Source: Clostridia bacterium (GTDB taxonomy: Bacteria > Bacillota > Clostridia > Oscillospirales > CAG-272). Taken from it: a DNA stretch of 64,000 nt. The stretch covers positions 1 through 64,000 of the forward strand of contig JAFVXI010000013.1 in the NCBI GenBank assembly GCA_017501245.1, given 5' to 3'. Position numbers and translations under genes: made by a program. The notes under the pieces are model-generated. The model was not told where the DNA came from, made no database searches, and saw only the letters and a program-made list of their open reading frames with translations. Below, piece by piece: positions 409 to 43,837 of the stretch; the stretch's first letter is position 1, and each line of letters begins with the position of its first letter.

Positions 409-1617
409 TTAAGAGGACGCCTTGAAATTGTAGATGGGCTTGATCTGGCGGATGATCCTTGCGGTGGGTGAAATATTGCTGACTATCTCCTCCATGCTCT
501 TATACGCCATGGGCGACTCGTCGAGCGTGTCGGGAGTGACGGAGGTGGAATATATGCCCGACATCTCTGCCTCGTACTCCGCCATAGTGAGACGCTCGAA
601 GGCGGTGGCACGGGACATAAGACGGCCTGCGCCGTGGGGCGCTGAGTAGTTCCAGTCCTCGTTGCCGATGCCGACGCAGACGAGCGAGCCGTCCCTCATA
701 TTTATAGGAATAAGAAGCCTCTCGCCCTCCCTCGCCGAGACAGAGCCCTTGCGAAGGATCATACCCTCAAGGTCGATGTAGTTGTGGATGGTGGAAAAGC
801 TCTCACGGGCGGTGTAGCCGCATCTGTCCATAATTATCTCGGCTATCTTTTCCCTGTTTCGGGTGGCGAAGCGCTGACAGACGTCAACGTCGTGGAGGTA
901 ATCCTGCATATAGTCGCCCGAGAGGTAGCAGAGGTCCTCGGGGAGCGTGGGCTCCTTTGCCATAAAGCCTGCCTCAAGAGCCTTGAGAGCCGCCCCGATC
1001 TCCGAGCGCCTGCCCTCCTCCTTATAGGCGCGGATTATTCTCTCACGCTCACGGAAGTACTCCTCCTTGCCGAGGTTGAGATCAACGGCAAGTCTTTGGT
1101 AATACTCAGCCACCTGCGTGCCGAGATTGCGGCTGCCCGAGTGGATGACGAGATACTTTCCGCCCTCCTCGTCTACGTCCATCTCGATGAAGTGGTTGCC
1201 GCCGCCGAGCGTGCCGATGCTCCTCTCAAGGCGCCTTGAATCCCTGAGTTCCCTATAACAGCGAAGAGCCGTGAGGTCAAATCTCTCCTGCCTGCCCTCC
1301 CAGACCCTCTTGCCCGAGGGGATAAAGTGCGCCGCCTCGTCGAGCCTCTCAAAGTCGATGTCGACCTCGCCAAGATATACGGTATACATACCGCAGCCGA
1401 TGTCAACGCCCACCATAGCGGGGACGATCTTGTCACTTACGGTCATCGTAGTGCCGATGGTACAGCCCTTGCCTGCGTGGACGTCGGGCATTATTCTGAT
1501 CCTCGACGAGGAGAACGCCTCGGTGTCGCAGACCGCTCTGATCTGCTCTACGGCGCCCTCGTCTATCGTGGTGGCAAAGCATTTTGCCACGTTGTATTTT
1601 CCTTTTATCTCTACCAT
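409..1617 (-). CDS. rtcB: RtcB-family RNA ligase
   Basis: GTP- and metal-dependent RNA ligase that seals 2',3'-cyclic phosphate or 3'-phosphate ends to 5'-OH ends, repairing or splicing cleaved RNA in the cytoplasm. At 402 residues it is the short RtcB form. Visible family motifs in order: the MPDVHAGKG and GVDIGCGM metal-site segments in the first 80 residues, GGGNHFIE near residue 140, VIHSGSRNLG near 157, and APHGAGRLMSR near 328, whose His is the guanylylation site in characterised RtcB. The start has AAAGG just upstream. The gene follows the Ro60-like gene by 56 bases, and that gap holds a hairpin with a U-tract, so rtcB may depend on read-through. Linkage of RtcB to Ro60 and Y RNA is known from Salmonella (rsr-yrl-rtcBA). 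No RtcA cyclase is visible here. Confidence 0.95.
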   Translation of the reverse strand: MVEIKGKYNVAKCFATTIDEGAVEQIRAVCDTEAFSSSRIRIMPDVHAGKGCTIGTTMTVSDKIVPAMVGVDIGCGMYTVYLGEVDIDFERLDEAAHFIPSGKRVWEGRQERFDLTALRCYRELRDSRRLERSIGTLGGGNHFIEMDVDEEGGKYLVIHSGSRNLGTQVAEYYQRLAVDLNLGKEEYFRERERIIRAYKEEGRRSEIGAALKALEAGFMAKEPTLPEDLCYLSGDYMQDYLHDVDVCQRFATRNREKIAEIIMDRCGYTARESFSTIHNYIDLEGMILRKGSVSAREGERLLIPINMRDGSLVCVGIGNEDWNYSAPHGAGRLMSRATAFERLTMAEYEAEMSGIYSTSVTPDTLDESPMAYKSMEEIVSNISPTARIIRQIKPIYNFKASS

Positions 1618-1636
1618 AATGTAAACCTTTCTTATT

Positions 1637-1666
1637 AAAAAAGGGGCAAAGCATCCGCTTCACCCC
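1637..1666 (-). terminator. Intercistronic terminator-like hairpin before rtcB
   Basis: On the minus strand a 10-bp stem (GGGGTGAAGC/GCTTTGCCCC, two G-T pairs) with a GGAT loop is followed at once by six U. It meets the rules for an intrinsic terminator yet sits only about 20 bases before the rtcB start. It could attenuate rtcB relative to the Ro60-like gene. Confidence 0.65.
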
Positions 1667-1672
1667 TATTAT

Positions 1673-3157
1673 TTACGCCACGATGGGCGCATATCTCTCG
1701 CTCTCTACGACCTCCATCATAAAGGCGTAAGGATCGATCGTTCCGCCTGCGATCATCGAGAAGAGCCTCGGCGTGCATCCTGAAACGAGGGCAACGCCCT
1801 TATCGTTTACCGTGACGGGCTGCTGCCTTCTGCGGCTTGCGACGTTCCAGAAGATGACGTCGGGGAGCTTGTAGCCTGCCCTCTCAAAGCGCTCTCTGGC
1901 ACACTCGATGTTTGTGAGATCTGCCCTTTCGACGCAAGCGTCAAACTCCATATCCGAGATGATAACGAGCTTTGTGGGCAGCTCGCCGGCATCCACGTGA
2001 TTCTTTATCGCCGCCTTTAAGATGAGGTTAAATACAGCCTCAAGATTGGTGTTTGCTATCTCGCAAAGAGAGGCTAAGTAGCGCAGCTTTGCGGTAAAGG
2101 TCCTGCCCTTCAGCTCCATCAGCCTCGGCCTCGCCGAAAACTCGATAAAGTGATTTGCGAAGCTTCCCGTGTTATGCTCGGCAAGATAGATGCCCAGCGA
2201 GAGAGCCACCGCCGCAGGCAGAGGCCTGCCTCCGGAGTACATAGAGCCCGAGGTGTCGATGACGGCGAGCATATTTTCACTCGTGCCGAAATCGGGGAGG
2301 CTATGCCAGGTTGCGTTGAGGGCGAGCTCCTCCTCCTTGGACATAGCGCGGAGGTTTGGGGAGCTTGACCAGCTGAAGTTGAGATAGGGCTCGACAAGCT
2401 CGTAGGGGGCGAGCGTGTCTGCGTGGAGCCTTGCTTCTCCCGCCGAGACCTTTTTTATAAAGTCGGAATATCTCTCGGAGTCGTTGCGGATAAACGCCTT
2501 GCGATACTTATACATAGCACCCGAGGGCTGCTTAGAATAGTCGAAGGTGTAGTCCTTTACTCTGAGATTATTTTCGATGATGCGGATCCTCGCACGGAGT
2601 GCGACGAGAGACTTACGGTAGGTCGCATCGTCCATGCCGAGGCTCCTTGCGATCCTCTTTGCCATTTTTCTCGTCTCGTGATTTGATGCGTTTACCGAGG
2701 GGAGCCACTTGGCAAGCAGGGAGATTTCCCCATCTGCCGCATCAGCCGCCATATCCTCGGTGAGCTGCTCACGGATCATGGCAAGAGCATCAGCCTCAAG
2801 AGGCGTGTCTATAAGCGTGAGCAGATCGTCAAATCTTCCGTATTCCTTAATATGAACGAGGTTTTTTCTTAGGCTGTCGGGCTCGTTATACGCAAGCCAC
2901 TTAAGGATGACTCTGAACACACGGCGCTCGCCGAGGCCGCCTCTGACGTCCCTTGCGAAAAAGAGAAGCTTCATTGCTATATCTCTGTTTTCATAAAAGG
3001 CACGCACGAAGCGCGCTTCTATCTCACGGTAGCTCTTGCGGCGAAGTGCGCCAACGGTGGCAAAAAGGTCGAGGCAGTCGGAGCCGGTGGTGGCGTAGGT
3101 CAAGGCACCGTTTTCGGTAAAGGTCATATTTGCTTCCCTTTTAAGATGCTGTAACAT
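1673..3157 (-). CDS. TROVE/VWA protein, bacterial Ro60 (Rsr)-like
   Basis: A 494-residue Ro60-type protein. Ro60 is a ring of helical repeats that binds Y RNAs and the ends of misfolded or cleaved RNA. The first ~290 residues are helical and include the conserved ALTYATTGSDCLDLFATVGAL and LLFFARDVRGGLGERRVFR-type segments of the bacterial family. The last ~190 form a von Willebrand A domain with a MIDAS-like DTSGSM motif near residue 310. The start chosen is the ATG at 3157, behind AAGGAGTGAG; the upstream in-frame GTG overlaps that Shine-Dalgarno. The gene lies directly downstream of four structured RNAs and upstream of rtcB, all on one strand, which supports an RNA-quality-control role. Databases may label such proteins TROVE or DUF2828; I am sure of the family type, less so of the partner RNA. 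Confidence 0.85.
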   Translation of the reverse strand: MLQHLKREANMTFTENGALTYATTGSDCLDLFATVGALRRKSYREIEARFVRAFYENRDIAMKLLFFARDVRGGLGERRVFRVILKWLAYNEPDSLRKNLVHIKEYGRFDDLLTLIDTPLEADALAMIREQLTEDMAADAADGEISLLAKWLPSVNASNHETRKMAKRIARSLGMDDATYRKSLVALRARIRIIENNLRVKDYTFDYSKQPSGAMYKYRKAFIRNDSERYSDFIKKVSAGEARLHADTLAPYELVEPYLNFSWSSSPNLRAMSKEEELALNATWHSLPDFGTSENMLAVIDTSGSMYSGGRPLPAAVALSLGIYLAEHNTGSFANHFIEFSARPRLMELKGRTFTAKLRYLASLCEIANTNLEAVFNLILKAAIKNHVDAGELPTKLVIISDMEFDACVERADLTNIECARERFERAGYKLPDVIFWNVASRRRQQPVTVNDKGVALVSGCTPRLFSMIAGGTIDPYAFMMEVVESERYAPIVA

Positions 3158-3199
3158 GAAACTCACTCCTTTTCTAATGAATTTGTAATGATTTGTTTA

Positions 3200-3298
3200 C
3201 AAGGCACTATTTTAATGTGAGATTCGAACTCACGTTAGAGGATATAATTATCCCCGGCTTTAACCATTAAGCTAATTTATATTGCTGCTTGTGCCTTT
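3200..3298 (-). ncRNA. Y-RNA-like RNA 4 with tRNA-like module (YrlA-like)
   Basis: On the minus strand the ends pair perfectly (AAGGCAC/GTGCCTT). After the 5' arm comes CAGCA and an A-rich segment, shared with the three RNAs upstream. Inside are a D-arm-like hairpin (GCT...AGC around AATGGTTAA), a GGGGATA/TATCCTC hairpin with a four-base loop, and a canonical T arm with 5-bp stem GTGAG/CTCAC and the loop TTCGAAT. It is not a normal tRNA: the middle hairpin lacks a seven-base anticodon loop and there is no standard acceptor stem. A tRNA-like module joined to a closing Y stem is the known design of bacterial YrlA RNAs, and the next gene downstream encodes the Ro60-like partner. Confidence 0.7.
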
Positions 3299-3300
3299 AA

Positions 3301-3414
3301 CAAGATACCTTTTTTGATATGCCGATCTTCCGCCTTTTTCGTTGTGCGGTGCGGCAGTGCCAGACGCTATGCATCAGCCTGTAATATGATAGTTTTATTG
3401 CTGGCGGTATCTTT
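3301..3414 (-). ncRNA. Y-RNA-like RNA 3
   Basis: The ends pair as AAGATACC/GGTATCTT (8 bp). The 5' arm is followed by CAGCAATAA and the 3' arm is preceded by a run of A, as in RNAs 1 and 2. The enclosed ~95 bases are GC-rich and hairpin-prone, with no T-arm motif. No credible reading frame covers it. The call rests on the repeated architecture and on its position upstream of the Ro60-like gene. Confidence 0.55.
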
Positions 3415-3425
3415 ATTGAGTTTTT

Positions 3426-3606
3426 CAAGATACGCTTTTTTGGAAGGGCGGCGTCGGAGCGCACTGACTAAAGTCCTACGCCCCCGCAACCCATAATAAC
3501 AAGTGTGCAAGAGACGGGCGACGGGCGCCTCCTCTTACGCTCGGCGAGTGAACGCTTTTAGCGATCCCCGTCCGTCATTCTCTTATTATCTGCTGTTCGT
3601 ATCTTT
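3426..3606 (-). ncRNA. Y-RNA-like RNA 2
   Basis: The ends pair as AAGATACG/CGTATCTT (8 bp), with CAGCAGATAATAA after the 5' arm and six A before the 3' arm. Internally it has a GTAAGAG...CTCTTGC hairpin and an ATCGCT-AAAA-GCG hairpin. Related versions of both occur in RNA 1, but in swapped order. It is about 180 bases, the largest of the four. Confidence 0.55.
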
Positions 3607-3615
3607 ATTCGGCTG

Positions 3616-3760
3616 CAAGATACTTTTTACCGAAGCTCGCTTTTTGCGAGCGATTAACCACCGTAAGAGGTCGGTGATGGACACCTCTCCCTTACGTTCG
3701 GCACGGCGCACCGAGGTGCATCTGCCTGTTATTCATCATACGGCTGCTGTAAGTATCTTT
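3616..3760 (-). ncRNA. Y-RNA-like RNA 1
   Basis: First RNA of the array in transcription order. The ends pair as AAGATACTT/AAGTATCTT (9 bp), with CAGCAG after the 5' arm and a GTAAAAA run before the 3' arm. A GTAAG...CTTAC hairpin and a GCTCGC-AAAAA-GCGAGC hairpin lie inside. Linkers between successive RNAs are 3-13 bases, so one transcript processed into units is as likely as separate promoters. Confidence 0.55.
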
Positions 3761-3883
3761 CTCTTGCGGCTCTGATATCGGGCTGATCCGCAGGTCGGCT
3801 TCACTGACCTTAAGATATGTCCCGGGGGTGCCGCATTTGCCTTTGTGACTACATTTTACCATCTCAAATCCCTATTATCACGG
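3761..3883 (-). promoter_or_regulatory. Leader and candidate promoter of the RNA array
   Basis: Between the WYL terminator and RNA 1 there is an extended -10 (TGG-TAAAAT, 853-861 in the last three digits) with only a weak -35 (GTGATA) 17 bases upstream. A short AGGTC...GACCT hairpin follows. A poor -35 fits an activator-dependent promoter, but that is inference. Confidence 0.35.
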
Positions 3884-3918
3884 AAAAAAAGCTGCGAACT
3901 CATCAGATGAGCCCGCAG
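3884..3918 (-). terminator. Terminator of the WYL gene pair
   Basis: On the minus strand CTGCG-GG-CTCAT/ATGAG-TT-CGCAG forms a hairpin with one internal 2x2 mismatch, followed by seven U. It overlaps the last codons of the upstream WYL gene and separates it from the RNA array. Confidence 0.75.
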
Positions 3919-4814
3919 TTTTTCTGATTTTTTAGCTTTTCGACTATCAGATCGACGAAGCTCTGTGGCTCCGTGACCTTGACGAGAGAGCCGAAGGATA
4001 GGATCCTGATGACCATCTCGGTCTCGTCGTTTTTGTTGTAGGTGACCGTAAGGCGGTATTTGCGCCCGCCGAGAGACTCCGCCCTCTTCTCAAAGTGGGC
4101 AAAGTGAAGCATCACACGCTCGAGAGCGTTTTTCTCATCGGTAATCTCGAGTGTCACGCTGTCGGTTTCGGGCGGATAATCGGTAAAGGGCACGAACCTC
4201 TCGCCCTCGTAGGGCTTACACTTCGTGATCCTTGCGAGGTTCATAACGTATACGTACCTCTTGCCGCTGGTATACATTCTGAATTTATCGTCCTTCTCGG
4301 AGTATTCGAGCTTGGTGGGTATGCATCTGCGGAAGATCGTATCTCCCGCACGGTTCGTCATCTCGATCTTCAAGGGGGATTTTTTCTTTATAGCGTCGAG
4401 AATGATCCGAAAGCGCTCGATATACCCCTCGTCGTCAAAGGGGTCGCCGTCCGAATACTTGTCGTAGACGTAGTAGTCCTCCTCGGTGAAGAGTGGCTCA
4501 ACGTCACAAAGGTCGGGAAATTCCCAGCCGAAAAGTCTGATGCGTCTGTCGAGCGAGATCGCCTTGAGCCATCTGCGCTCAAGCTCGGTGAGGGGCATCG
4601 AGGGCGAGCCTTGTATCGGCGTCGTCATATCCCTCTTTACGAGCTGCCATCTTCCGCTCTTGAGTGCAGGGAGGATGGTAAGCACGCTCTCGCCGAAGGC
4701 ATGCTCGGCGACGATCCTCTGAAGGTCCTTTTCGCTGCTGTCCTCTCTGAGGAGCGCCGCAAGTATCTTGGCGACGGCGTTGTAATATGCGGAATATATC
4801 TCGTGGAAGATCAT
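3903..4814 (-). CDS. WYL-domain protein (second of pair)
   Basis: A 303-residue protein with a predicted helical N-terminal part and a WYL-type ligand-binding domain at about residues 120-220 (segments FRMYTSGKRYVYVMNLARI and the following CKPYEGERF), then a C-terminal WCX-like extension ending near the stop. WYL proteins are usually transcription regulators whose SH3-like WYL fold binds a ligand, often nucleic acid or a nucleotide. No clear DNA-binding helix-turn-helix is evident in this one. Its start overlaps the stop of the upstream WYL gene by 4 bases (ATGA), so the two are translationally coupled and may act as a pair. The position just upstream of the RNA array and Ro60/RtcB suggests control of that locus. 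Confidence 0.75.
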   Translation of the reverse strand: MIFHEIYSAYYNAVAKILAALLREDSSEKDLQRIVAEHAFGESVLTILPALKSGRWQLVKRDMTTPIQGSPSMPLTELERRWLKAISLDRRIRLFGWEFPDLCDVEPLFTEEDYYVYDKYSDGDPFDDEGYIERFRIILDAIKKKSPLKIEMTNRAGDTIFRRCIPTKLEYSEKDDKFRMYTSGKRYVYVMNLARITKCKPYEGERFVPFTDYPPETDSVTLEITDEKNALERVMLHFAHFEKRAESLGGRKYRLTVTYNKNDETEMVIRILSFGSLVKVTEPQSFVDLIVEKLKNQKNCGLI

Positions 4815-6067
4815 TTTTCATTCACCTCCAAGCCGTAGAGCGAATACATTTTGCTAAGATCCGCCTTAAGCTGATTTTCAACCGTTCTGTTTGAGAAGCG
4901 CAGGCTGACTATACGGCAGATAAAGCTCCTGATCCAGGGGATGAGTTCCATCGTGTCGTAGACGTCGGCGGAGAAAAGATAGGTCCTCTCATCAAGCTTC
5001 TCTACCCTGCCGACACGCTTTTCCCTCTCTAGCCTCCTCAGAATATGCCCCTCATCCTCCTCGATCCTGACGGCAAACTCAACGTGCTCAAGATGCTCCT
5101 CCGAATGGCGCCCTCTTTTGATATTAACGCCCCACATATATGGCTGCATACGGTCGAGCATCTGCCGAAGCTCGTCAAACCGCGGAGAGGGCTCCTCCAG
5201 CTTTACGCCCGAGAGGTAGTCCACTCTGAAGGATCTGAAGGTGTTAAACTCAGGCGAATAAGCCAGAAGATGCTGCCTGCCGTTTTGCACGCTGATGAAG
5301 ATGCGAAGGGGGATAAGGCGGTTTTTCCTCGGCTCGTCGCGCCTACGTGACATATTGTTTACCGTGATGGCGCATTTTTTCCTCATAGCATCAAATAGCA
5401 TAGCCAGAACACCGGCATCGAGCGCACCGGTTATGTAGTGATGCTTGAAGTCGAAGGGATGCTCAGCGTGCTCGGTCTTATCAAGCAAAAACGAGCCTAT
5501 GACTCCGCAGGGCGCTATCTCGGAATAAAAGTCGAGAGCGTGGACGTCCGGCAGGGACAGGTCGTCGGGGATGCGGCTGTAAATAACACGCTTGCCCTCC
5601 TTCCTCGCCGTGAGCAAGCCAAGCTCCTTGTATTCCTTCAGCTTTTTTCTGACCGTGGACTCGTCGAAGCTCATCGGCTCCTCAAACTCCGAGAGATATT
5701 TCTCCTCGATGATATCGACGAGCTCGGGGACGGAATAGCCGACGGATGGGGAATTCAGTATGTCAAAAATAATAAAATGAAGAGTAATATCCCCGTCGGT
5801 AAAGCTCTTGGCCTTCCACGCCTTGTAGAGCGGATTATGATCCGAAACACGGCTGTCGATGGAGATGAAAACACTCTTACCCTCGGGAGTACGCACGAAG
5901 CTCATATGATCGCCGAGCCAGCTCTCCATACGGCGGCGCTCGTCGTCGTAGGTCCTTGCGCTCTTGCTCTTATAGTCCTCGCGGCTCTTGATGCCATAGA
6001 CGTAAAACTCGCGCATATACGCTCTGATGCGCTCAAAATTCTTTATCAGCTCGCTGTATGATGACAT
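4811..6067 (-). CDS. WYL-domain transcriptional regulator with winged helix
   Basis: 418 residues. Residues ~85-165 look like a winged helix-turn-helix (FIIFDILNSPSVGYSVPELVDIIEE onward, then DESTVRKKLKEYKELGLL), with a long charged helix before it. Residues ~215-320 carry the WYL-type domain (RIFISVQNGRQHLLAYSP, then FRSFRVDYLSGV), and the rest matches a WCX extension. It starts with ATG behind AAAGGAGTAACGT and has its own strong promoter at 6152-6180. It probably acts as the DNA-binding partner of the coupled downstream WYL protein. Proteobacterial RtcB operons use RtcR instead, so a WYL pair here would be an alternative regulator; the regulatory link is inferred from position only. Confidence 0.8.
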   Translation of the reverse strand: MSSYSELIKNFERIRAYMREFYVYGIKSREDYKSKSARTYDDERRRMESWLGDHMSFVRTPEGKSVFISIDSRVSDHNPLYKAWKAKSFTDGDITLHFIIFDILNSPSVGYSVPELVDIIEEKYLSEFEEPMSFDESTVRKKLKEYKELGLLTARKEGKRVIYSRIPDDLSLPDVHALDFYSEIAPCGVIGSFLLDKTEHAEHPFDFKHHYITGALDAGVLAMLFDAMRKKCAITVNNMSRRRDEPRKNRLIPLRIFISVQNGRQHLLAYSPEFNTFRSFRVDYLSGVKLEEPSPRFDELRQMLDRMQPYMWGVNIKRGRHSEEHLEHVEFAVRIEEDEGHILRRLEREKRVGRVEKLDERTYLFSADVYDTMELIPWIRSFICRIVSLRFSNRTVENQLKADLSKMYSLYGLEVNEK

Positions 6068-6151
6068 ACGTTACTCCTTTCTTTGTGGGTTTTAGTGTCA
6101 TACGTCCGTGCCGCCCTCACTCTTTGATCTCGTGCGGGCGTTTTTTCTTTC

Positions 6152-6180
6152 ATTATAGCATAGGGGTGAGCGCTTTTCAA
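6152..6180 (-). promoter_or_regulatory. Sigma-A promoter of the WYL pair
   Basis: Minus strand: TTGAAA (6175-6180), 17-base spacer, TATAAT (6152-6157). It lies about 85 bases before the start codon of the first WYL gene. Confidence 0.8.
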
Positions 6181-6262
6181 TGTTTATTCTTTTTCGTGCT
6201 TTTTCACAGGCGTCAAGTCGGGAAGGTCTACATTTACAGTCATTCATCGGTCGTAAAGTAAG

Positions 6263-6299
6263 AAAAGCCGCCGGGGGCAGCGTTCCCTCGGCGGCTTTT
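6263..6299. terminator. Hairpin terminator after the 464-residue gene
   Basis: AAAAGCCGCCG/CGGCGGCTTTT stem of 11 bp with T runs on both strands. It ends transcripts of the unknown gene at 6340-7734 before the WYL promoter. Confidence 0.75.
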
Positions 6300-6339
6300 T
6301 CGTTTTTTGTTCAGCGCATCGGAGCTTCTCGCCCCCGAG

Positions 6340-7734
6340 CTATTTATATACGCTGAGCATCCTTACTACGTCGGAGACGGTGTTAAGTCCGCTCCTTACG
6401 TCGCTCGGCGTTTTTGAGAGGGTGAACCAATATTTTTCACTGCCGGCAAAGCGCAGCTTATAGTGATTTGCGTCGGCGACGACCTCAAATCCGACGCTGC
6501 GGAGCCTGGCGAGGTCTGTCTCCCTTGGACTCCGCCCCTCGGAGAGCGTATTTTTTACAACGGCTAAAATCTCTTTACCTATGCCGACCTCGGCGTTTGC
6601 CTCGAGGAGCTTCTCCGAAAGCTCGTATGCTCGGGTGTCAGGTCCGTAGCCCCTTTGCGCAATTCTGAGAGAGGAGAGGATGAGATCGTTTTCCTCGCCC
6701 TCGTATAGCTCGCCGGGCGCTTTTTTTATTATGCACTCACCGTCTCCTCTATCTAAGGCAAGCTCCAGAGCCTCGTTTTTAGATCTTAGTATGCGGTTTT
6801 CCTCCACGAGAGCTGAGATCCTCTCCATCGCATGGCGGAGCCTATCCTCGAGGCTTTCGTTTTCGTCAAACGCCACGTCGAGCAAAAGCGCCTTTTCCTT
6901 CTCACGCTCCTCCACCAGCTCCACGTGCAGCTGCTTCCAGGTTGGGGCGGTGGCGCCGACGGCGGCGGTCACAAGCCTTTGCGCATCCTTTAAGATCTCC
7001 TTATCCAGCTCTCCGCCGAAGCTATCCGTGCCTCGGTAGATCCTCGGCTTTCCGTTTGCGGAATAGATCGCCACGGCTCCGTTATACGGCGGCCTTGCGC
7101 CCGTGCGCTCCTTTAATAATCCCGTATACTCGCTGTCGCAGACAAGCACGGCGGCGATGCCCGCAAGGCTCCTCGCTAAGCCGTATTCATCCACGGCGTA
7201 GCCCATGCTGTCAAAGTATCTCGTGACGAGGACGATGGGCATAGAGGCGCTGTATTCCTCCCTCACGGCAGAAACGAGCAGCCCCTCAAGTCCCTCGGCT
7301 TCTATCGGCTTATCACACACGGGAGGTAAACCATTCTTTACAAATCCGCTGTTAACGAAGGCTCTGACGACCTCGGTGCGCATTTGCGGCACCTCGTCAA
7401 ACCTCGAGATATCTCTCGAGCAGTCCAGGTGTATAAAGAGCGATCTCTCATCGTCTAAGATGCGCAGTATCAATTCCGTCGTCCAGGTCTGCTCGTGGAA
7501 GACCTGCTCGTGCTTGATCAGATAATGCTCGCAGTCATCCCTCCTTGCCTCGAAGGTCTCAAGCCTCGAGTAGCCGCATTCGAGCTTAATTCCAAGCTTG
7601 TTTTCGCTGGCGAGAAGCTCCTCACCGATAGGCTTGCAAGGTCCCGCCGAGATGAGCCATTTGCAAGCAACGTCAAAAAGCTCGACCTCAGAGAAGCTCT
7701 CGACCATCTCAAGCCTCGTGGATAAGACTATCAC
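6340..7734 (-). CDS. Conserved protein of unknown function with coiled coil
   Basis: 464 residues, function not recognised. Three parts can be seen. Residues 1-270 are a mixed alpha/beta region with a PIVLVTRYFDSMGYAVDEYGLA stretch (166-187) and PYNGAVAIYSANGKPRIY (216-233). I have seen this pattern (a hydrophobic strand, a D-x3-LA helix, then YxGAVxIY) in uncharacterised proteins, though I cannot name the family. Residues ~285-328 are heptad-like and charged, a probable coiled coil. Residues ~395-464 form a small domain with HYKLRF...YWFTLSKTPSDVRSG, reminiscent of HicA-like or dsRBD-like folds. It overlaps the upstream 600-residue gene by 4 bases and shares its operator-bearing promoter. 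A two-protein stress or defence module is possible; nothing in the sequence proves it. Confidence 0.5.
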   Translation of the reverse strand: MIVLSTRLEMVESFSEVELFDVACKWLISAGPCKPIGEELLASENKLGIKLECGYSRLETFEARRDDCEHYLIKHEQVFHEQTWTTELILRILDDERSLFIHLDCSRDISRFDEVPQMRTEVVRAFVNSGFVKNGLPPVCDKPIEAEGLEGLLVSAVREEYSASMPIVLVTRYFDSMGYAVDEYGLARSLAGIAAVLVCDSEYTGLLKERTGARPPYNGAVAIYSANGKPRIYRGTDSFGGELDKEILKDAQRLVTAAVGATAPTWKQLHVELVEEREKEKALLLDVAFDENESLEDRLRHAMERISALVEENRILRSKNEALELALDRGDGECIIKKAPGELYEGEENDLILSSLRIAQRGYGPDTRAYELSEKLLEANAEVGIGKEILAVVKNTLSEGRSPRETDLARLRSVGFEVVADANHYKLRFAGSEKYWFTLSKTPSDVRSGLNTVSDVVRMLSVYK

Positions 7735-9533
7735 CCTTTTACCTCCCGGTTTTCATCAGTCATTTCGTTAAGCTCGCCGCGGTATATCTCGGCGAAGCCC
7801 TTTGCGGCGTAGAGCCTCGTTATCTCGTCGTTATTTCTTTTTTCTGCCGAGAGGGCGGCGGCTATCAAGCCGTCTATCGCACTGTTGAATTTATCTCCGA
7901 AGCGACGGATAACGCTCTTGTTCGTATAGGCACAGAGAAGCTCCGAGAGATTACGCATGCTTACGTCGGGGTAGCGGAGAAATTCTCTTCCCGAACGGAG
8001 GACGCCGCCCTCCGCAACGTAATCCATAAAGATGCCCGCGAGATCCCCGATCGGATCAATAATATCGCATTTAGACCACTCAGAGATCGAAACACCCTTT
8101 CCGTCACGGCTCATATTGAAGCCGCCCGACAGCGCCCTTCTATACGAATATACTCTGCACTCTCCGAGCCTCTCCATAGACAGGCTATGGATATCCGAAA
8201 GCATCTCGCCAAGCTCGGAGCAGCTGATATATCTGCGAGCGCCTGCCGTGGCGGAGAGCTTAGTTACCCCGCTTTCCTCACCCAGATATTCGGGCAGATA
8301 GCGGCAGCCCCTCTCGCCCGAGAGATAGAGCAAAGCCTCGAGAGCCACGTCCGGTGTCTTTTTATAGTAGCAGACTCCGTCGTCTATAAACCATTCGCCA
8401 TCCTGCATTTTTTCAAGGCTCTTGACGCCGAGGCGCGCGATCACGTTTTCGGTGAGGCAATAGCTTATCTCATCCTCAAAGCCTGTGCCGGAGGTGAGCA
8501 GCTCCGAAAGTCCCCAGGAATACATAACGTGCTGACCGTCATAGGTTATTTCATACAGGCCGCGATTTATGCCCGTGGTGAAGAACCTTTCGCCCGGCTT
8601 ATTTACGGCGCCTCTTCTGAAGGCTTCACTCATCTCATCAAGATAGCCGCGATAAGCCGTGAGGATCATCCTTGCCGCAGGTCCGTCGCCGTGCGCAAGA
8701 GAGTATTTAAGCATCTCGAAAGCGATGGGGGAGATATATTTGTTTTTATCCTCGTCCCAATCAAGCGTGCGAGCCTCGAGGAGCGACTTGAATATCCTGT
8801 CCGTGGCTATAACAGAGGCAAGAAAAGCCTCCAACTTTTTTTCATCATCAACCCAAAATTCCGCACTGAACAAGGTCCTTCTGTCAAATGCGGCAATAAA
8901 AAGCTCGGGGTCATCAAGCGAGAAGATCTTCTCCCATATCTTATCCGAATGCTCGCTCGCCCGATAGAACGTGCCGTCTCCAAAGCGGAGGCGGGAATCG
9001 CATCTTAAGAGCCCTTTTTTAATGATAAAGGCGAAGCCCGTATCCGATCCGTACTCGAGAATATAGTCGATGACAGTCTTGCCATATTCGTCAGTGTTTT
9101 TGATCACTCTGGTGTAGCCGTCGGCGTCGTAGGTGTCGAACAGCTCTTCGTAAAGCCACTCCTCGTCAAGATAGGCGGCGTATCTGATGCCGCTCGGCTT
9201 AAAGGGCTCCCTGCCTTCGTCCGGGACCACCGGCAAGGGCTCTATAAGGTCTACCCAGCTGGAGCCAAGCGCTCTTTCGATAGCCTTGATATCGCTCTCG
9301 GTAAAGGGCTTGATGCCCTTGATCTTTTTGCCGAAGTCGGGCATCTGCCCCTTAACCCACTCATCACGCCCCTTATCCATATCGGGCAGATGCATGTAGT
9401 ATCTATCAAACATTTTGCGAAGCAGGGCGCTGTTTCCGTCTATATTCTTTTCACGGTATATGTGCTTGAACTGCTTTTCATAATTACTCTTTTCCTTAGG
9501 CGGTCTACCCACCTTTTTTATTTCGTTTGCCAT
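7731..9533 (-). CDS. Large protein of unknown function with AT-hook-like N-terminus
   Basis: 600 residues, not recognised. The N-terminus has a basic KKVGRPPKEK stretch, an AT-hook-like GRP core that suggests DNA contact. Most of the rest is predicted helical with repeated hydrophobic-acidic blocks (for example around 140-290), compatible with a solenoid or ankyrin-like array but without clear repeat consensus. No membrane segment, signal peptide or nucleotide-binding loop is visible. ATG start behind AAAGGAGAG. First gene of a two-gene operon with the 464-residue protein, 4-base overlap. The promoter is near consensus and overlain by a 14-bp palindrome, so expression is probably repressed until a signal arrives. 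Confidence 0.45.
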   Translation of the reverse strand: MANEIKKVGRPPKEKSNYEKQFKHIYREKNIDGNSALLRKMFDRYYMHLPDMDKGRDEWVKGQMPDFGKKIKGIKPFTESDIKAIERALGSSWVDLIEPLPVVPDEGREPFKPSGIRYAAYLDEEWLYEELFDTYDADGYTRVIKNTDEYGKTVIDYILEYGSDTGFAFIIKKGLLRCDSRLRFGDGTFYRASEHSDKIWEKIFSLDDPELFIAAFDRRTLFSAEFWVDDEKKLEAFLASVIATDRIFKSLLEARTLDWDEDKNKYISPIAFEMLKYSLAHGDGPAARMILTAYRGYLDEMSEAFRRGAVNKPGERFFTTGINRGLYEITYDGQHVMYSWGLSELLTSGTGFEDEISYCLTENVIARLGVKSLEKMQDGEWFIDDGVCYYKKTPDVALEALLYLSGERGCRYLPEYLGEESGVTKLSATAGARRYISCSELGEMLSDIHSLSMERLGECRVYSYRRALSGGFNMSRDGKGVSISEWSKCDIIDPIGDLAGIFMDYVAEGGVLRSGREFLRYPDVSMRNLSELLCAYTNKSVIRRFGDKFNSAIDGLIAAALSAEKRNNDEITRLYAAKGFAEIYRGELNEMTDENREVKG

Positions 9534-9557
9534 TTTTCTCTCCTTTGGTCGTAACTT

Positions 9558-9603
9558 ATCACTGCAGTGATTTCATTATAGCAGGAGGTGAGTTTTCTGT
9601 CAA
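9558..9603 (-). promoter_or_regulatory. Consensus promoter with palindromic operator
   Basis: Minus strand: TTGACA (9598-9603), 17 bases, TATAAT (9575-9580). The perfect 14-bp palindrome ATCACTGCAGTGAT (9558-9571) lies over the expected transcription start, an ordinary repressor position. The bases from 9604 to 9776 hold an imperfect GCCAA...TTGGC inverted repeat and no gene. Confidence 0.75.
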
Positions 9604-9776
9604 GAGTTTTAGCCAATTTCTAGTTGGCTTAAATTAAAGCATCTTTTCTTAAGCCGCACTCGTGATACATTTGACCGCTTGAATTTTCGCCAACTTGATG
9701 GTAGGCGGATATGTTTTTTCTTCATTATTTAGTATTATCACGCGCGTATGTATATTATAGTTTGCGTTTTCACGTC

Positions 9777-9814
9777 AAAAGCCGCCGATGGAGATAATTT
9801 CCTCGGCGGCTTTT
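9777..9814. terminator. Terminator of the lipocalin-like gene
   Basis: A 12-bp stem AAAAGCCGCCGA/TCGGCGGCTTTT, with T runs usable on either strand, just downstream of the minus-strand CDS that ends at 9844. Confidence 0.7.
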
Positions 9815-9843
9815 CACTATTTTATTTTTTGCTGACGGACGTG

Positions 9844-10965
9844 TCACTTCGCTTGCTTTGCCTTATATATTTCATCGGCGGAGGTCTTGCCAAAGTACAT
9901 CAGCTCCCAGACGGCCGGGTCGCTTACACTCTCGATCACTCTGTCATCCGAGAGGCGCTCGACGGTTGCCCTGCCCTCAAATCGGAGGTAGCCTCCGTCA
10001 AAGCCGATGAGCCTTGCGAGCAGTCCGAGCGGCTTCGGAAGGACGTCGACGAAGCGTGTTTTGTTTATGTCGCCCTCTCGCTCGTAGATTATGCGATAGT
10101 CCTCGTCGCCATCGGTGGTGTATTCATAGACGACCCTGTTGTAGACGGGCTTGCCCGTGTGGCTGTCTATGTATCTTTCCTCGGGGAGGAATTTAAGCGT
10201 ATGGTTAGAGTTGTCGCCGATGATCTCGCCGCCCTTAGCTATCATAAAGACGCCGTGCTCCTTGAAGCCGTATTTCTTTTCGGCGGTTATCCATGACGAG
10301 ATGACCTTATAGTCGCCGATCTTGGCTCTGCCCCAATACCAGTGATGCATCAGCTTCATCATCGAGATGTTTCCCCAGTTGTGGTCGTGGTAGCCCGAGC
10401 CCTCAAGATGCAGAGCCTTGCCGCCGTCAAAGGTTACGTCAGCGACCGCAACACCCTCGGGGATAGCAGGCAGCCATGCGAAATAATGCTCCTCGTTATC
10501 GCCGAAGAAGATGCTTCCCGTCTGCGAGCGCCAGGCTCTTATCGTGCCGTCGAGGGTGAGGTTAGCGCTCATCTCCTTACCCCGGAAGCAGACCTCGTAA
10601 TGCTTTAGATCACCACGGCAATAGCATTCACCTATCCGCACGTCGCACTTGTCCTTTGCGTAGTGGCTCTCCTCTATGGTGGCGTAGACATCCTCGGAGA
10701 ATTTCCTGCCGTCAGGGAGCGTCAACTCCATCGTAGCGATGGGCTTTATCGGCCCGTCAACGGCTATCGGCATCTTTGAAAAGAGGAATAAGACGAGCAC
10801 CGTTCCGTCGGGGTAATGCGAATCAAAATACCACCACTCGTAATTGCCCTTTGAGCCGTCGACACGGGAGCCATCCTCCCATTGCTCGACCTCGCCGCGC
10901 TTAAGCCCCATTTTTTCATAATGGAGATCATCATCGGGATGTATCGACTTTAATATCTTTTTCAT
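9844..10965 (-). CDS. CrtC/AttH-like lipocalin-domain protein
   Basis: About 373 residues. It resembles the tandem-lipocalin AttH/CrtC superfamily, which includes hydroxyneurosporene synthase (carotenoid 1,2-hydratase). Signature-like segments are WYFDSHYPDGTVLV near the N-terminus, GSGYHDHNWG near the middle (the family's conserved HDHNWG) and HHWYWGRAKIGDY after it. No carotenoid genes are nearby, so the substrate is unknown; most clostridial members are unassigned. I place the start at the internal ATG (MKKILKSIHPDD) at 10965 because GAAAGGAA precedes it, whereas the upstream in-frame ATG has no ribosome site. It is 47 bases downstream of the CPBP protease gene and probably cotranscribed. 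Confidence 0.7.
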   Translation of the reverse strand: MKKILKSIHPDDDLHYEKMGLKRGEVEQWEDGSRVDGSKGNYEWWYFDSHYPDGTVLVLFLFSKMPIAVDGPIKPIATMELTLPDGRKFSEDVYATIEESHYAKDKCDVRIGECYCRGDLKHYEVCFRGKEMSANLTLDGTIRAWRSQTGSIFFGDNEEHYFAWLPAIPEGVAVADVTFDGGKALHLEGSGYHDHNWGNISMMKLMHHWYWGRAKIGDYKVISSWITAEKKYGFKEHGVFMIAKGGEIIGDNSNHTLKFLPEERYIDSHTGKPVYNRVVYEYTTDGDEDYRIIYEREGDINKTRFVDVLPKPLGLLARLIGFDGGYLRFEGRATVERLSDDRVIESVSDPAVWELMYFGKTSADEIYKAKQAK

Positions 10966-11012
10966 TTGAGTTCCTTTCGTAGCCCTGCGAGGCTTTAGCA
11001 TAATTTGATTTA

Positions 11013-22100: not shown

Positions 22101-25100
22101 ATGTCGATGCGGATAGCGAAGGAGATCGAGAAATCCGGATACCAATAAACGCTTCCTCCAACGCTGTCGATGAGGGTTATGCCCGCTATGGATACGTCAC
22201 GCATATATCCCTCGATGCCCCTCATAGAGAGGCTGAGGTCCGCCCTTGCGGAGAGCTGGCTGAAGAGAGCAAACTCGCCGCTGATGATAAGAGTGAGAGG
22301 GGGGATAACGTCGGTGCCGAAGAAGGACTCGTACATATCGGTGATGCCTGCGCCCGCACCCTTGACCCAGAATACCATAAAGGGATCAATGGGGATGCCG
22401 GGCTCAATGCCGCCGACGAAGAAGCGGATAGTGTCGGGGACGGGGATGCCGTTATAGCTCTTGAGTGCAAGCTCGACCTCCATCTCAAACACCATCATAT
22501 CCGCTCTGCCCTCAACTCCGAACTCCCAATAGTCGTTGATGACCTTGAGCGAGAGAGTTCCCTCAATGTAAGGGAGGGGATCGGTGTAGGAGGGGATGCC
22601 GACCTCGATAGAAGTGTTAAAGCCGATGAAGCCGCCCGCACCGAAGAGAATGTCGTCCATATAGAGGTTGAGCGTTCCTATCTGCTCACGTCTCCACTGC
22701 GACTGATCCTTGGCATACTGCGTGTCGGTGGCTCTGAGCTGCTGAGCGGTGTACTGACCTAAGCCAAGCTCTCTGTACTGCGTCTCCATCTTGGAGTAAT
22801 GCCTCTTGTCGCCGGCTATGCCGGGAGGCACGAGAATAGAGGGATCGAGAGCTGCGCCGAAGGAGATGACCCTTTCAAGCGAGCCGCCCTGCTCCATAAG
22901 GCAGAACTGACCGTAGCGGAAGTTGAGGAGAAGCCCGACGAGCGTCTGCATTCCACCTGCGGCACCCGGCCAGAGGAGAGTGATCTCCTTGCCGTCCTCG
23001 CCGTCGACCTTTTCGCCCTGCTCGTTGTAAACGGGGAGGCTGTATTTAGTTCCCTCGTCGAAGGAGGTGATAGCGAGAACGCCGTCCCAGACCTTGGTGT
23101 TTGCGCCGACGGTGTATACCTTACCGTCGATATCGACGTCGATGGCGACCTGCTTATCGCCCTCGAAGCGCTTGGTGACGGTTACTCTGCCGTTTTTGAC
23201 CTCCAGAGTGTCGTTGATGATGATATGCTCGCCGTTCAGAAGAGTGAGAGCCTCTGCCTTATATCTGCCCTGCTCCTCGGTGGAGAGGACGTTGAAGTCG
23301 CCCCTCATAACGAGCATTATGTCCTCGGTGGCGGTTCTCGTATTGAGATAATCCTGCTCCGTAGGATAGTTTACGATGTCGTAGCTCGTGCCGTCACGCT
23401 CGATGGTTACGATGCCGTACATTCCCGAGCTGACGTAGCCGGGGTCACCGGGCTTGGGAACGTCGGTTACGGTGAGCTTGAGCGCCTCGGGGAGCATATC
23501 CTCCACGGTAAGGTCGTTCCAATCTATGACGACCTGATAGGTAGTTGTGGAGAGAGTCTGATCTATGACTAAGGTAGCCATATTAAGCTCGGTGTTGATG
23601 ACCACGCGGTCCATATCGAGGACCACGTCCTCGCCGCCGTTTGCGGGACGGAGGAGGATTCGGTACTGCGATTTATCTCTGATGAGCCCGAAGCTCGAGC
23701 CGGTTACGTAGCATATTCTCGTGCCCTTGTGGAAAACGGTGTCGGGTGTCATACCGGTAAAGCCGACGCTCGCACCCTCGGCACCGGGGCAAAGAACGTA
23801 TATTTCATCCTCTATAACGGTGTTGTTCTCGTTAAGAGTGATACTGTCGAGATTTGAGACGTTGTAGACGACTACCCTGATCTTGCGATAGCCGGTTGCA
23901 ACGGTGGGATCGATGCGCATATCGAAGCGCACGTCCCTGGTTTCACCCGCCTTCAAGCCGTCGATAAGCTTGTAGTAGGGATTGACGGGGGAAACATCGT
24001 AGCGGAAGTTACTTCCGTCGTGAGGAATTACCTGCTCCTCGGGGTAGATGGCAACCGCAAGGCGCTTGATCTCTGCGTCCTTGATGTTCTGCACCTTTAT
24101 GGTGGTGGAGAAGTTGCCGGGGAGGCTGCCGTTTATGTCCTTGTAGGCGTCGCCCGCATTGTTGAAGAACATACTGCCCGTGGTGGTGTAGTTGAGGGCA
24201 ACGTCGGCATCGCCTGCGTTGTAGTTGGAGTAAACGCCGTAATAGAGCGCCGCACCCGTGCCCTCGGACTCAGCCTCTATACCACCCATATCGTAGTAAA
24301 GAGCGACTGCGCTGTCGGCGGTGAGATGATCTATGCTGCCGGTAGCCTCGGTGAAGTCGGCGGGGTTGTTTGCCGGGGGCTGATAGTCGAATACGGTGGC
24401 TGCGAGGCTGCCCCAATGTGCGAAGGTGACCTTAGAGGGGACTATCATCTCGCCCGCTACGCTTGCGTTGAGCGTATAGGCGGTGACGGTGGGTGAGGTG
24501 AGATCGTCGTAGGCGAAGAAGTAATTATAATACTCACTTCCCGAAACCGTTCTCTCACGTCTGACCTCTACGTAGCTGCCGTCGTTCTGACCGAGCATAT
24601 AGTAGCCGTAGTCCTTGGTGCCGAGGGCGGTGTCCATCATTACCCTCGCCTCAACAGAATCAACGGCAGCACCGGAGGTGTTGGTGGCGGAATAGCTGAT
24701 ATAAGCCATACCGTGCTGATAGGTGTCGGCGCCCATAAGAGCGATGACCTGGCGGAAGAGTATGCCGTCTACCGTCCACTCAGCGGTTATTGCGTTGTCG
24801 GCGTTTCTGATCACTGTGACCTCGGAGGTGTCCTTGCCACGGAAGGAGTAATCTCTGCCGAATATGTAGTCGGAGACCTCGCTGCCCCTCTTCACACGGA
24901 AGGAGGTGAAGGAGGTGTCAAAGTCGGATGCCGAATAGACGAGATCCTTGCCGTTATCCGACTTGGTGAGGACGTCGCCCTCGTCGGTTCCGATATAGAA
25001 GCCGCCGTTCTCGGTAGAAACTCTGACCTTTATATAACCGTCGGTAAGCTCAATATACCCCGGGCCGTTCGTTGAGGTGATGGATCCGCCGCCGGCTCCA

Positions 25101-25219: not shown

Positions 25220-25312
25220 TTTATGAAACCTCCCGGGGTTGATTAATGTTTCTTTTTCTTACTTTTGTCTTTCGGGCTTCCCTCTTGTGATTTATAGAGG
25301 AGAAGCTCTTTT

Positions 25313-25335
25313 GCGGCAGGTGCTGCCGCTTTTTT
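25313..25335 (+). other. Reverse-oriented terminator-like hairpin
   Basis: GCGGCA/TGCCGC stem with six T on the plus strand, in the gap between two minus-strand giant genes. Next to it (about 25340-25380) is a second, GC-rich hairpin without a T run. Confidence 0.5.
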
Positions 25336-25394
25336 CTTTTCCCGAGGAGCGCTTTGGGAGCGCCCCTCAGGATCGGGCTTTACTTTTCCTCGGC

Positions 25395-43595: not shown

Positions 43596-43684
43596 TAATA
43601 CTTTATCGGCTTTTTGAAAAACGCGACGAAAGTCGGTGAACCGGCGCAAGACGGAACCAAACGAAACAGGGCGAAAGCAAAATA

Positions 43685-43718
43685 AAAACCGCTCGGCAAG
43701 CTTCTGCTGAGCGGTTTT
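43685..43718. terminator. Bidirectional terminator
   Basis: 10-bp stem AAAACCGCTC/GAGCGGTTTT with T runs both ways, between the convergent aminotransferase and methylaspartate ammonia-lyase genes. Confidence 0.75.
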
Positions 43719-43837
43719 GCTTATTATAGTTTACAAAACAGGGCTATTTTGCTTCATTTAAACGCTTTGCACAGGGGCGGTGCATCCGCCTTTTAGCTCC
43801 GTTTTGCCCGAATGCGAAAAGCGCCGGATGAAAGAGA

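What the first reader, a model, noticed from the sequence alone, without database searches (positions are those of the whole stretch)
3200..3760. Tandem array of four Y-RNA-like RNAs upstream of a Ro60-like gene and rtcB
Seen: four consecutive minus-strand segments whose ends pair (AAGATACTT/AAGTATCTT, AAGATACG/CGTATCTT, AAGATACC/GGTATCTT, AAGGCAC/GTGCCTT). Each has CAGCA two or three bases after the 5' arm, and an A-rich run lies before the 3' arm. Linkers are 3-13 bases, insert sizes about 98-180 bases. Arms are compensatory between copies (TT/AA, G/C, C/G at the inner end), which argues for selected RNA pairing. Known: Ro60-type proteins bind Y RNAs through the end-pairing stem, and Salmonella links rsr, yrl RNAs and rtcBA. 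Inferred: a set of diversified Y RNAs, each carrying a different effector domain on a common Ro-binding stem, which would be a new clostridial version of the system.
Basis: partly seen in the sequence, partly recalled or inferred. Interest (0 to 1): 0.85.

Follow-up and report, generated by a model that had tools for sequence, protein, structure and literature searches.

The report
tRNA-mimic RNA arrays beside Ro60-like genes
Next to a Ro60-like gene and an RNA-repair ligase, gut Clostridia and many bacteriophages carry arrays of small RNAs that share one stem and often display pieces of transfer RNA, including anticodon loops and rearranged tRNAs, probably as bait for enzymes that cut tRNA.

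Summary
Four minus-strand units (3201-3759), each closed by a stem, lie between two WYL regulators and a Ro60-like gene followed by rtcB; shuffled windows hold 0.95 such units, never two within 600 bp. The layout recurs: 31 of 33 related loci, mostly Clostridia, hold 125 non-overlapping units upstream, against 14 elsewhere on both strands. Phages with the same protein (677 of 50,697 records) carry units in nearly all the records opened. Typically a 7-9 bp stem is followed by ACAGCAA. Cargo is often tRNA-like: of 312 non-redundant cargos 42 carry a 5-bp hairpin whose 7-nt loop is a real anticodon loop (0.25 expected) and 43 a T-arm (0.65 expected). Separately, 11 of 558 T-arms belong to circularly permuted tRNAs with a capped acceptor stem (0.42 expected). 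The protein is a remote full-length TROVE homolog. Best reading: a Ro60-family particle presenting a panel of probably unchargeable tRNA mimics, likely decoys for tRNA-cutting nucleases. Function is inferred, binding untested, and only one of the window's four units is clearly tRNA-like.

The parts
3201..3297 (-). Unit nearest the Ro60-like gene: 7-bp stem AAGGCAC/GTGCCTT, CAGCAA, tRNA-like cargo (D-arm and T-arm; anticodon arm with a loop that is not 7 nt)
   Evidence: Rfam tRNA 38.8 bits at 3209-3281; fold of 3202-3298 z -3.98
3302..3413 (-). Unit with 8-bp stem AAGATACC/GGTATCTT, CAGCAA; cargo not recognised as tRNA-like
   Evidence: fold of 3303-3415 z -2.34
3427..3605 (-). Unit with 8-bp stem AAGATACG/CGTATCTT, ACAGCAG; long structured cargo, no exact anticodon loop
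   Evidence: fold of 3427-3607 z -3.70
3617..3759 (-). Unit with 9-bp stem AAGATACTT/AAGTATCTT, ACAGCAG; structured cargo, no exact anticodon loop
   Evidence: fold z -3.94
3770..3844 (-). Possible degenerate first unit without the CAGCA motif, at the place where related loci have their first unit
   Evidence: sequence; fold of 3760-3850 z -2.55; position relative to the conserved element; inference
3845..3883 (-). Promoter-like element CCGTGA-N19-TAAAATG upstream of the array, directly after the T-run of a terminator-like hairpin behind the WYL genes
   Evidence: T-run plus CCNNGA pattern found upstream in 27 of 33 sequences searched, window included; in 24 of 33 a CAGC motif follows within 70 nt, in the window only after 127 nt
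1673..3127 (-). Ro60-like protein, 484 aa from the ATG (DUF2828 + DUF7788; phrog_850), vWA-type MIDAS DTSGS
   Evidence: Pfam E 1.7e-35 and 1.3e-38, run on the 497-aa reading from the upstream GTG; phrog_850 E 8.5e-126; hhalign to TROVE prob 98, E 2.6e-13
409..1617 (-). RtcB RNA ligase
   Evidence: PF01139 E 3.4e-56
3903..4814 (-). WYL-type regulator a
   Evidence: PADLOC WYL E 3.8e-10; Pfam WCX below its cut-off; found in 26 of 33 loci
4811..6067 (-). WYL-type regulator b
   Evidence: PF13280 E 9.4e-8; found in 26 of 33 loci

Best explanation
The locus encodes a ribonucleoprotein in which a divergent Ro60-family protein (DUF2828/phrog_850) holds small RNAs by a common terminal stem plus the ACAGCAA segment. 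Many of these RNAs present a different tRNA-like head: an anticodon stem-loop, an anticodon arm plus T-arm, a whole cloverleaf, or a circularly permuted tRNA whose acceptor stem is capped and so should not be chargeable. I propose that the heads are decoys for nucleases that cut tRNA, in bacteria against tRNase toxins and phage or defence effectors, in phages against host tRNA-cutting defence, and that RtcB, where present, reseals cut tRNAs or decoys. Shown here: array, stem covariation, motif, gene order, tRNA mimicry, permutation, spread in phages. Inferred: binding by the Ro-like protein, transcription in the window's host, decoy function, the role of RtcB and of the WYL regulators.
For: Enrichment upstream of the gene; own-arm test 114 of 138 vs 7.6%; covariation in one cloverleaf family, 42 cells changed on both sides vs 11.6 shuffled, 0 of 500 shuffles as high; exact anticodon loops in 42 of 312 cargos vs 0.25, T-arms in 43 of 312 vs 0.65, 7-nt loops in 171 of 312 vs 64; permuted capped tRNAs 11 of 558 T-arms vs 0.42, none with an ordinary 5' half, all with the motif 27-41 nt before the T-arm; tRNA-like genes with the stem hairpin in the anticodon arm (loose rules), several seen independently as Rfam tRNA matches of 114-122 nt; order WYL-WYL-array-Ro-RtcB; Lys-UUU and Phe-GAA loops over-represented against nearby tRNA genes (nominal p 4e-4 and 5e-3, 12 anticodons tested). 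Literature: in Listeria phage CKA15 the same protein is in virions and abundant noncoding RNAs lie upstream of it, proposed there as possible Y RNAs (PMC12282133, passages and section 8); for Salmonella a competitive-inhibitor role of YrlA's tRNA-like domain was suggested (PMC7790460, passages).
Against: None of the window's four units has an exact anticodon loop, and only 1 of 4 is recognisably tRNA-like. Across loci 270 of 312 cargos lack an exact anticodon loop. Nothing shows that any nuclease cuts these RNAs, and phage tRNA work so far stresses cleavage-resistant tRNAs rather than bait (PMC10264068, passages); in Salmonella fragments of YrlA were not seen, so it is not itself cut there (PMC7790460 passage). 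RtcB was found in 24 of 33 bacterial loci (some contigs end early) and in 2 of 83 phage, viral-contig and plasmid loci, one of them a plasmid, by a search that could miss divergent ligases or ones beyond the flanks. Binding by the Ro-like protein is inferred from position only. CKA15's most abundant RNA (26,236-26,727) holds no such unit. Distribution is patchy: 4 of 59 relatives, own genome included.
Confidence: 0.5

Rival explanations
1. Expanded Y RNAs of the YrlA kind acting in RNA quality control: the Ro-like RNP tethers or gates an exonuclease such as PNPase, and the tRNA-like head is a docking or maturation module without decoy role.
For: D. radiodurans Rsr is tethered to PNPase by Y RNA and YrlA has a tRNA-like domain (PMC7790460 passages). 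Remote homology to TROVE. The unit next to the gene often has tRNA-like cargo (by eye; Rfam matches).
Against: Does not explain why several different anticodon loops are displayed or why homologous cloverleaves differ at the anticodon position (by eye).
Confidence: 0.2
2. Sentinel panel: the RNAs are cut by tRNases and the fragments signal damage to the WYL regulators, which switch on the array-Ro-RtcB unit.
For: Two WYL regulators in 26 of 33 loci and a conserved promoter-like element before the array. tRNA fragments activate the Salmonella rtc operon (PMC7790460, passages).
Against: The WYL pair was found near 1 of the 83 phage, viral-contig and plasmid loci compared, and that one is a bacterial plasmid, so it cannot explain the phage versions.
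Confidence: 0.13
3. The permuted and interrupted tRNAs are real tRNA genes that are matured, with RtcB as ligase, into working tRNAs; the Ro-like protein assists folding or splicing.
For: Acceptor stem, D-arm and T-arm are present; RtcB is a tRNA-splicing ligase by annotation; circularly permuted tRNA genes exist elsewhere (PMC3978253, search listing).
Against: Caps of only 3-9 nt join the acceptor strands; many cargos are lone hairpins; several lack a recognisable anticodon arm (by eye); RtcB is usually not beside the phage genes within the flanks held.
Confidence: 0.1
4. The heads bind the ribosome or tRNA-modifying enzymes and tune translation.
For: Lys-UUU, Asn-GUU and Phe-GAA loops lead the exact matches.
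Against: No specific evidence; cargos with a T-arm but no anticodon loop would not fit.
Confidence: 0.05

Closest known systems
Salmonella rsr-yrlBA-rtcBA operon and YrlA Y RNA
   Same: Ro60 relative, noncoding RNAs and rtcB side by side; a tRNA-like domain on a Y RNA (PMC7790460 passages)
   Different: Here the protein is of the DUF2828/phrog_850 family, regulators are WYL and not RtcR, no rtcA was seen among the seven ORFs checked, there are up to 8 detected units in a locus, and cargos elsewhere in the family show several anticodon loops and permuted tRNAs
Listeria phage CKA15 putative Rsr and Y RNAs (mSystems 2025, PMC12282133)
   Same: Same protein family (CKA15_055); abundant noncoding RNAs upstream proposed as possible Y RNAs; the protein is found in virions
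   Different: In the passages and section that I read I saw no repeat-unit anatomy, ACAGCAA motif, anticodon loops, permutation or spread to bacterial loci
Phage tRNAs that resist or replace cut tRNAs (PMC10264068 passages; PMC11555353 abstract start in the listing and a word search)
   Same: Phage-encoded tRNA-related RNAs tied to tRNA-cutting defence
   Different: Those are tRNAs meant to be used; these carry a common Ro-type stem and some have a capped acceptor or only an anticodon hairpin; the terms TROVE, decoy, Y RNA, permuted and Ro60 do not occur in either held main text
Circularly permuted tRNA genes (PMC3978253, search listing only)
   Same: 3' half encoded before the 5' half
   Different: Here the acceptor strands are joined by a 3-9 nt cap and the open side is closed by the Ro-type stem; no bulge-helix-bulge splice site was looked for

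Membership tests
Ro60/TROVE protein | Match to Pfam TROVE (PF05731) | tested here: not met
   Only DUF2828 and DUF7788 match; no PF05731 match in the window's own genome
Ro60/TROVE protein | Full-length homology to TROVE proteins | tested here: met
   hhalign of 39 relatives against 11 TROVE proteins: prob 98, E 2.6e-13, 393 columns; the TROVE set matches Ro60 and Rsr chains of the PDB at E 2.5e-46 or better. An earlier, shallower comparison gave prob 29.7, E 5.6e-4, and the family's own profile finds TROVE/Ro60 chains only at E 0.21-0.55, none in its first form
Ro60/TROVE protein | vWA domain with metal-binding DxSxS | tested here: met
   D291, S293, S295 invariant in 27 and in 39 sequences
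Ro60/TROVE protein | Ring fold and RNA binding | not testable with these tools
Bacterial Y RNA | Encoded next to a Ro60-family gene | tested here: met
   31 of 33 loci
Bacterial Y RNA | 5' and 3' ends form a conserved stem | tested here: met
   the canonical Ro-binding sequence was not compared
Bacterial Y RNA | tRNA-like module | tested here: inconclusive
   Met in window unit 3201-3297 and in many cargos elsewhere; not recognised in the other three window units
Bacterial Y RNA | Match to a known Y RNA family in Rfam | tested here: not met
   No Y RNA family reached threshold in the window, in 11 related bacterial loci or in 10 further loci, nor in window 3100-3900 at E up to 10
rsr-yrl-rtcBA operon type | rtcB present | tested here: met
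rsr-yrl-rtcBA operon type | rtcA and RtcR present | tested here: not met
   Not among the seven ORFs examined at 409-11001; WYL regulators instead. The rest of the window was not searched for them
Circularly permuted tRNA gene | T-arm and acceptor 3' strand precede acceptor 5' strand and D-arm | tested here: met
   11 cases in related loci; the window's units were not among the loci of that call and show no such order by eye
Circularly permuted tRNA gene | Processed into a functional tRNA | not testable with these tools
   Needs RNA sequencing

The most novel reading that the evidence does not exclude
A widespread, so far unnamed RNA class (common stem plus ACAGCAA, Ro60-family partner) in which phages and bacteria build unchargeable tRNA replicas, some by circular permutation, and display a panel of anticodons as bait for tRNA-cutting immunity and toxins: a multiplexed tRNA-decoy system.
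Probability: 0.42. Interest if true: 0.95.

Novelty: new variant of a known kind. Interest (0 to 1): 0.85.

Why it matters
What bacterial Ro60/Y RNA particles do and why they sit beside RtcB is an open question. A family in which the RNAs come in panels that visibly copy anticodon arms, present in well-known phages such as Felix O1 and LeBron, makes a direct test possible: delete the units and challenge with a known tRNase. It also adds an RNA class that I found unannotated in the records opened, and permuted, capped tRNAs, to well-studied phage genomes, and suggests why this RNA-binding protein (phrog_850) sits beside tRNA genes in several of them.

Tried and rejected
A bare 16-base pattern search of 398 phylum genomes gave matches in 96 genomes, mostly single and scattered, none in the window's own genome, and was not used as evidence. 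Canonical TROVE loci in viral contigs (59 loci) show 0.134 ACAGCAA per kb upstream against 0.089 elsewhere and 0.058 on the opposite strand, far below the 1.40 of the DUF2828/phrog_850 viral loci, so the motif belongs to that branch. A first count of capped acceptors with loose rules gave 11 of 367 T-arms upstream, 7 of 209 elsewhere and 0 of 41 on the opposite strand; it had no chance estimate and was replaced by a strict count with a swap control. One search, limited to upstream regions, suggested that LeBron, Felix O1 and Staphylococcus BE22 lack units; one search found units downstream of the gene. The first unit count (129) contained overlapping calls; without overlaps it is 125, two of them starting before the end of the WYL gene. 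I considered terminators and chance inverted repeats for the array and rejected them because of the arm-swap test and the conserved position.

Full report
The window array. On the minus strand four units lie head to tail at 3617-3759, 3427-3605, 3302-3413 and 3201-3297, between the WYL regulators (3903-6067) and the Ro60-like gene (1673-3127), with rtcB next (409-1617). Shuffled windows contain 0.95 units of this kind on average (max 3 in 100), never two within 600 bp. The unit next to the gene contains an Rfam tRNA match (38.8 bits); ARAGORN calls no tRNA in the window. The other three are structured but not recognisable as tRNA.

The protein. Pfam gives DUF2828 and DUF7788 and PHROGs gives phrog_850, RNA-binding protein. 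A comparison of 27 close relatives with three TROVE proteins was weak (prob 29.7). With 39 diverse relatives against 11 TROVE proteins it was strong over 393 columns (prob 98, E 2.6e-13); that TROVE set matches Ro60 and Rsr structures. The family's own profiles do not reach significance against Ro60 among PDB sequences. I call it a remote Ro60 homolog, not a TROVE-family member by Pfam.

Related bacterial loci. A scan of one genome per species found 33 loci, mostly Clostridia from animal guts by record title, also Fusobacterium naviforme, a Synergistales and an Acidaminococcaceae record. With a strict detector 31 of 33 have units within 4 kb upstream (L034 has none, L037 has no upstream sequence): 129 units, 125 without overlaps, two of which start before the end of the WYL gene, against 5 elsewhere on the same strand and 9 on the opposite strand; shuffles of one strand gave 3.0. 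The single unit of L029 is weak. In all 26 loci with a WYL gene a, units (111) lie between it and the Ro-like gene. With the bare word ACAGCAA (32 loci) the density is 1.56 per kb upstream, 0.146 elsewhere on the same strand and 0.093 on the opposite strand, and 92%, 34% and 42% of the words have a flanking stem. The gene order WYL-WYL-array-Ro-RtcB is conserved: both WYL genes in 26 of 33, RtcB in 24 of 33, some contigs being cut. A T-run plus CCNNGA pattern is found upstream in 27 of 33 sequences including the window; in 24 of 33 a CAGC motif follows within 70 nt, mostly at 42-45 nt, but in the window only after 127 nt. Among 59 relatives searched by family model, own genome included, 4 have the protein.

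Stem covariation. Of 138 five-prime motifs chosen without regard to pairing, 114 have the complement of their own four-base arm followed by CTT within 200 nt; with arms of other units the rate is 7.6%. In one recurrent cloverleaf family (19 sequences picked by eye, alignment A3) 94.7% of cells pair, 42 cells changed on both sides against 11.6 in shuffles, and the covariation score is 0.430 against 0.195, none of 500 shuffles as high. Two biases: the detector that supplied these units requires the terminal stem (helices 1 and 2), and the structure came from RNAalifold on the same alignment. Sliding the partners by 1-3 columns lowers pairing to 40-52%.

Cargo is often tRNA mimicry. I collected 365 units from 112 of 126 loci (bacteria, viral contigs, named phages, plasmids, window) and reduced them to 316 by cargo similarity, 312 long enough. 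Hairpins of 5 bp with a 7-nt loop occur in 171 of 312 against 63.9 in dinucleotide shuffles (max 72). Loops of 3, 4, 6, 8, 10, 11 and 12 nt exceed background by 5-26%; those of 5 and 9 nt are raised more (97 vs 65.8 and 104 vs 58.8). In 42 cargos the 7-nt loop is exactly an anticodon loop seen at least twice among 389 tRNA genes of the same loci (0.25 expected, max 2 in 20 shuffles); 43 have a T-loop hairpin (0.65 expected, max 2). Lys-UUU (8), Asn-GUU (6), Phe-GAA (6), Ser-UGA (5), Met-CAU (4) and Ser-GCU (4) lead; against the tRNA genes nearby Lys is over-represented (p 4e-4 before correction for 12 tests), also Phe (p 5e-3). The window's four units contribute no exact anticodon loop and one T-loop hairpin. 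In the A3 family the hairpin at the anticodon position differs between species (by eye: UCG, CAU, UAU, GGU, CGU, UGG). Two units of viral contig L070 fold as the common stem with a Lys or Asn anticodon hairpin and one small extra hairpin (z -3.79 and -2.94).

Permuted tRNAs. None of the 11 has an ordinary 5' half, all have CAGCNR 27-41 nt before the T-arm, and swapping downstream pieces among T-arms gives 0.42 (max 3 of 50). They include Mycobacterium phage LeBron, Salmonella phage Felix O1, Enterococcus phage EFDG1 (two), Sinorhizobium phage phiM7 and a Bacillus plasmid; the other five are in viral contigs L128 (three), L132 and L136. The minimum-energy fold of EFDG1 L153:3395-3516 contains the stem, the anticodon hairpin with the Phe loop, the T-arm, the capped acceptor and the D-arm (z -3.07); LeBron's shows stem, T-arm and capped acceptor but not the D-arm (z -1.56), and so does L128's (z -3.05). 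The reverse topology also occurs: 37 non-redundant tRNA-like genes, picked by loose rules without a chance estimate and a few of them doubtful, have acceptor, D-arm and T-arm and carry the stem as a short hairpin followed by the motif, ACAGCAA in nearly all, in the anticodon region. Independently, Rfam's tRNA model matches several of these over 114-122 nt (L067, L081, L101, L113, L116, L152); the two alignments printed, both of L081, place the insert inside the anticodon arm.

Phages. tblastn finds the protein in 677 of 50,697 phage records, hosts from Escherichia to Mycobacterium, Listeria, Vibrio and Campylobacter, and in 4 of 72,556 plasmids. Of 14 named records that I opened, 12 phages and 2 plasmids, units lie upstream in P100, F368, 4_4572, EFDG1, VRE9_4, Fnu1, CKA15 and both plasmids; phiM7 has an upstream unit about 2 kb away and a permuted tRNA; LeBron, Felix O1 and BE22 have them downstream; Vibrio ValKK3 has only a weak 6-bp candidate. 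In Felix O1 the stretch with two of the units (record 24493-24704) carries no annotation. In viral contigs 65 of 80 loci (the best 80 of 113 found) have at least one stem-bearing ACAGCAA within 2.5 kb upstream; 1.40 words per kb against 0.170 elsewhere on the same strand and 0.076 on the opposite strand, with stems at 69%, 50% and 25% of them. Viral loci of the canonical TROVE kind do not show this (0.134 per kb).

Published context. In Listeria phage CKA15 the same protein, CKA15_055, is found in virions; three noncoding regions within 2 kb upstream are very strongly transcribed, and the authors suggest siRNAs or Y RNAs (PMC12282133, passages and section 8). The units I find there (record 25289-25553) lie in an unannotated gap behind a TTGACA-TTATCAT-like sequence; the text read gives coordinates only for the strongest region (26,236-26,727), which holds no such unit, so coincidence with one of the other two is plausible but unproven. 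A jumbo-phage survey notes a TROVE protein in a small subset of jumbo phages and says that in cells it works with a tRNA-like partner (PMC7824862, passages), and a Vibrio phage paper notes a Ro60-related protein (PMC7765460, passages). Chen et al. 2014 and Burroughs and Aravind 2016 could not be read; the former is cited in PMC12282133 for Y RNAs in bacteria and mycobacteriophages. My ten paper searches listed no paper that by title or abstract start describes this anatomy; that covers only the open-licence library.

Judgement. That these are structured RNAs belonging to the Ro-like gene and often mimicking tRNA is, in my view, nearly certain (about 0.93). That they bind the protein is likely (about 0.85) from position and homology. 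Decoy function is my preferred reading at about one in two; quality control, sensing and true tRNA production are live rivals.

Noticed in passing
window 43675-43722, minus strand: The only other detector match in the window looks like a terminator hairpin that happens to contain CAGCA, not a unit.
   Followed up: yes
L159 (Listeria phage CKA15) about 4450-4941, record 26236-26727: The phage's most abundant RNA (published) is a roughly 490-nt noncoding region just upstream of the Ro-like gene; it has no ACAGCA unit and its class is unknown.
   Followed up: partly
L039 and L041, between units upstream of the Ro-like gene (printed): Free-standing tRNA-like sequences with acceptor, D- and T-arm but a very short anticodon loop lie between the units (by eye).
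   Followed up: no
L020 5152-5225 and L039 5816-5890: tRNA-Phe genes with an unusual AAA anticodon stand inside the arrays.
   Followed up: no
L153 (Enterococcus phage EFDG1) 65-415: Strong Rfam tmRNA match (140.6 bits) with no feature listed there in the record's annotation.
   Followed up: no
window 6340-7734, minus strand: ORF of 464 aa without a Pfam match but with a weak PADLOC HEC-07 match (E 2.6e-6), upstream of the WYL genes.
   Followed up: no
L009-L041, gaps between units: A second kind of hairpin (for example TACACCGTT...ACGGTGTA with GATTCACTT) without the motif recurs between units in several loci (seen by eye, whose output was cut).
   Followed up: no
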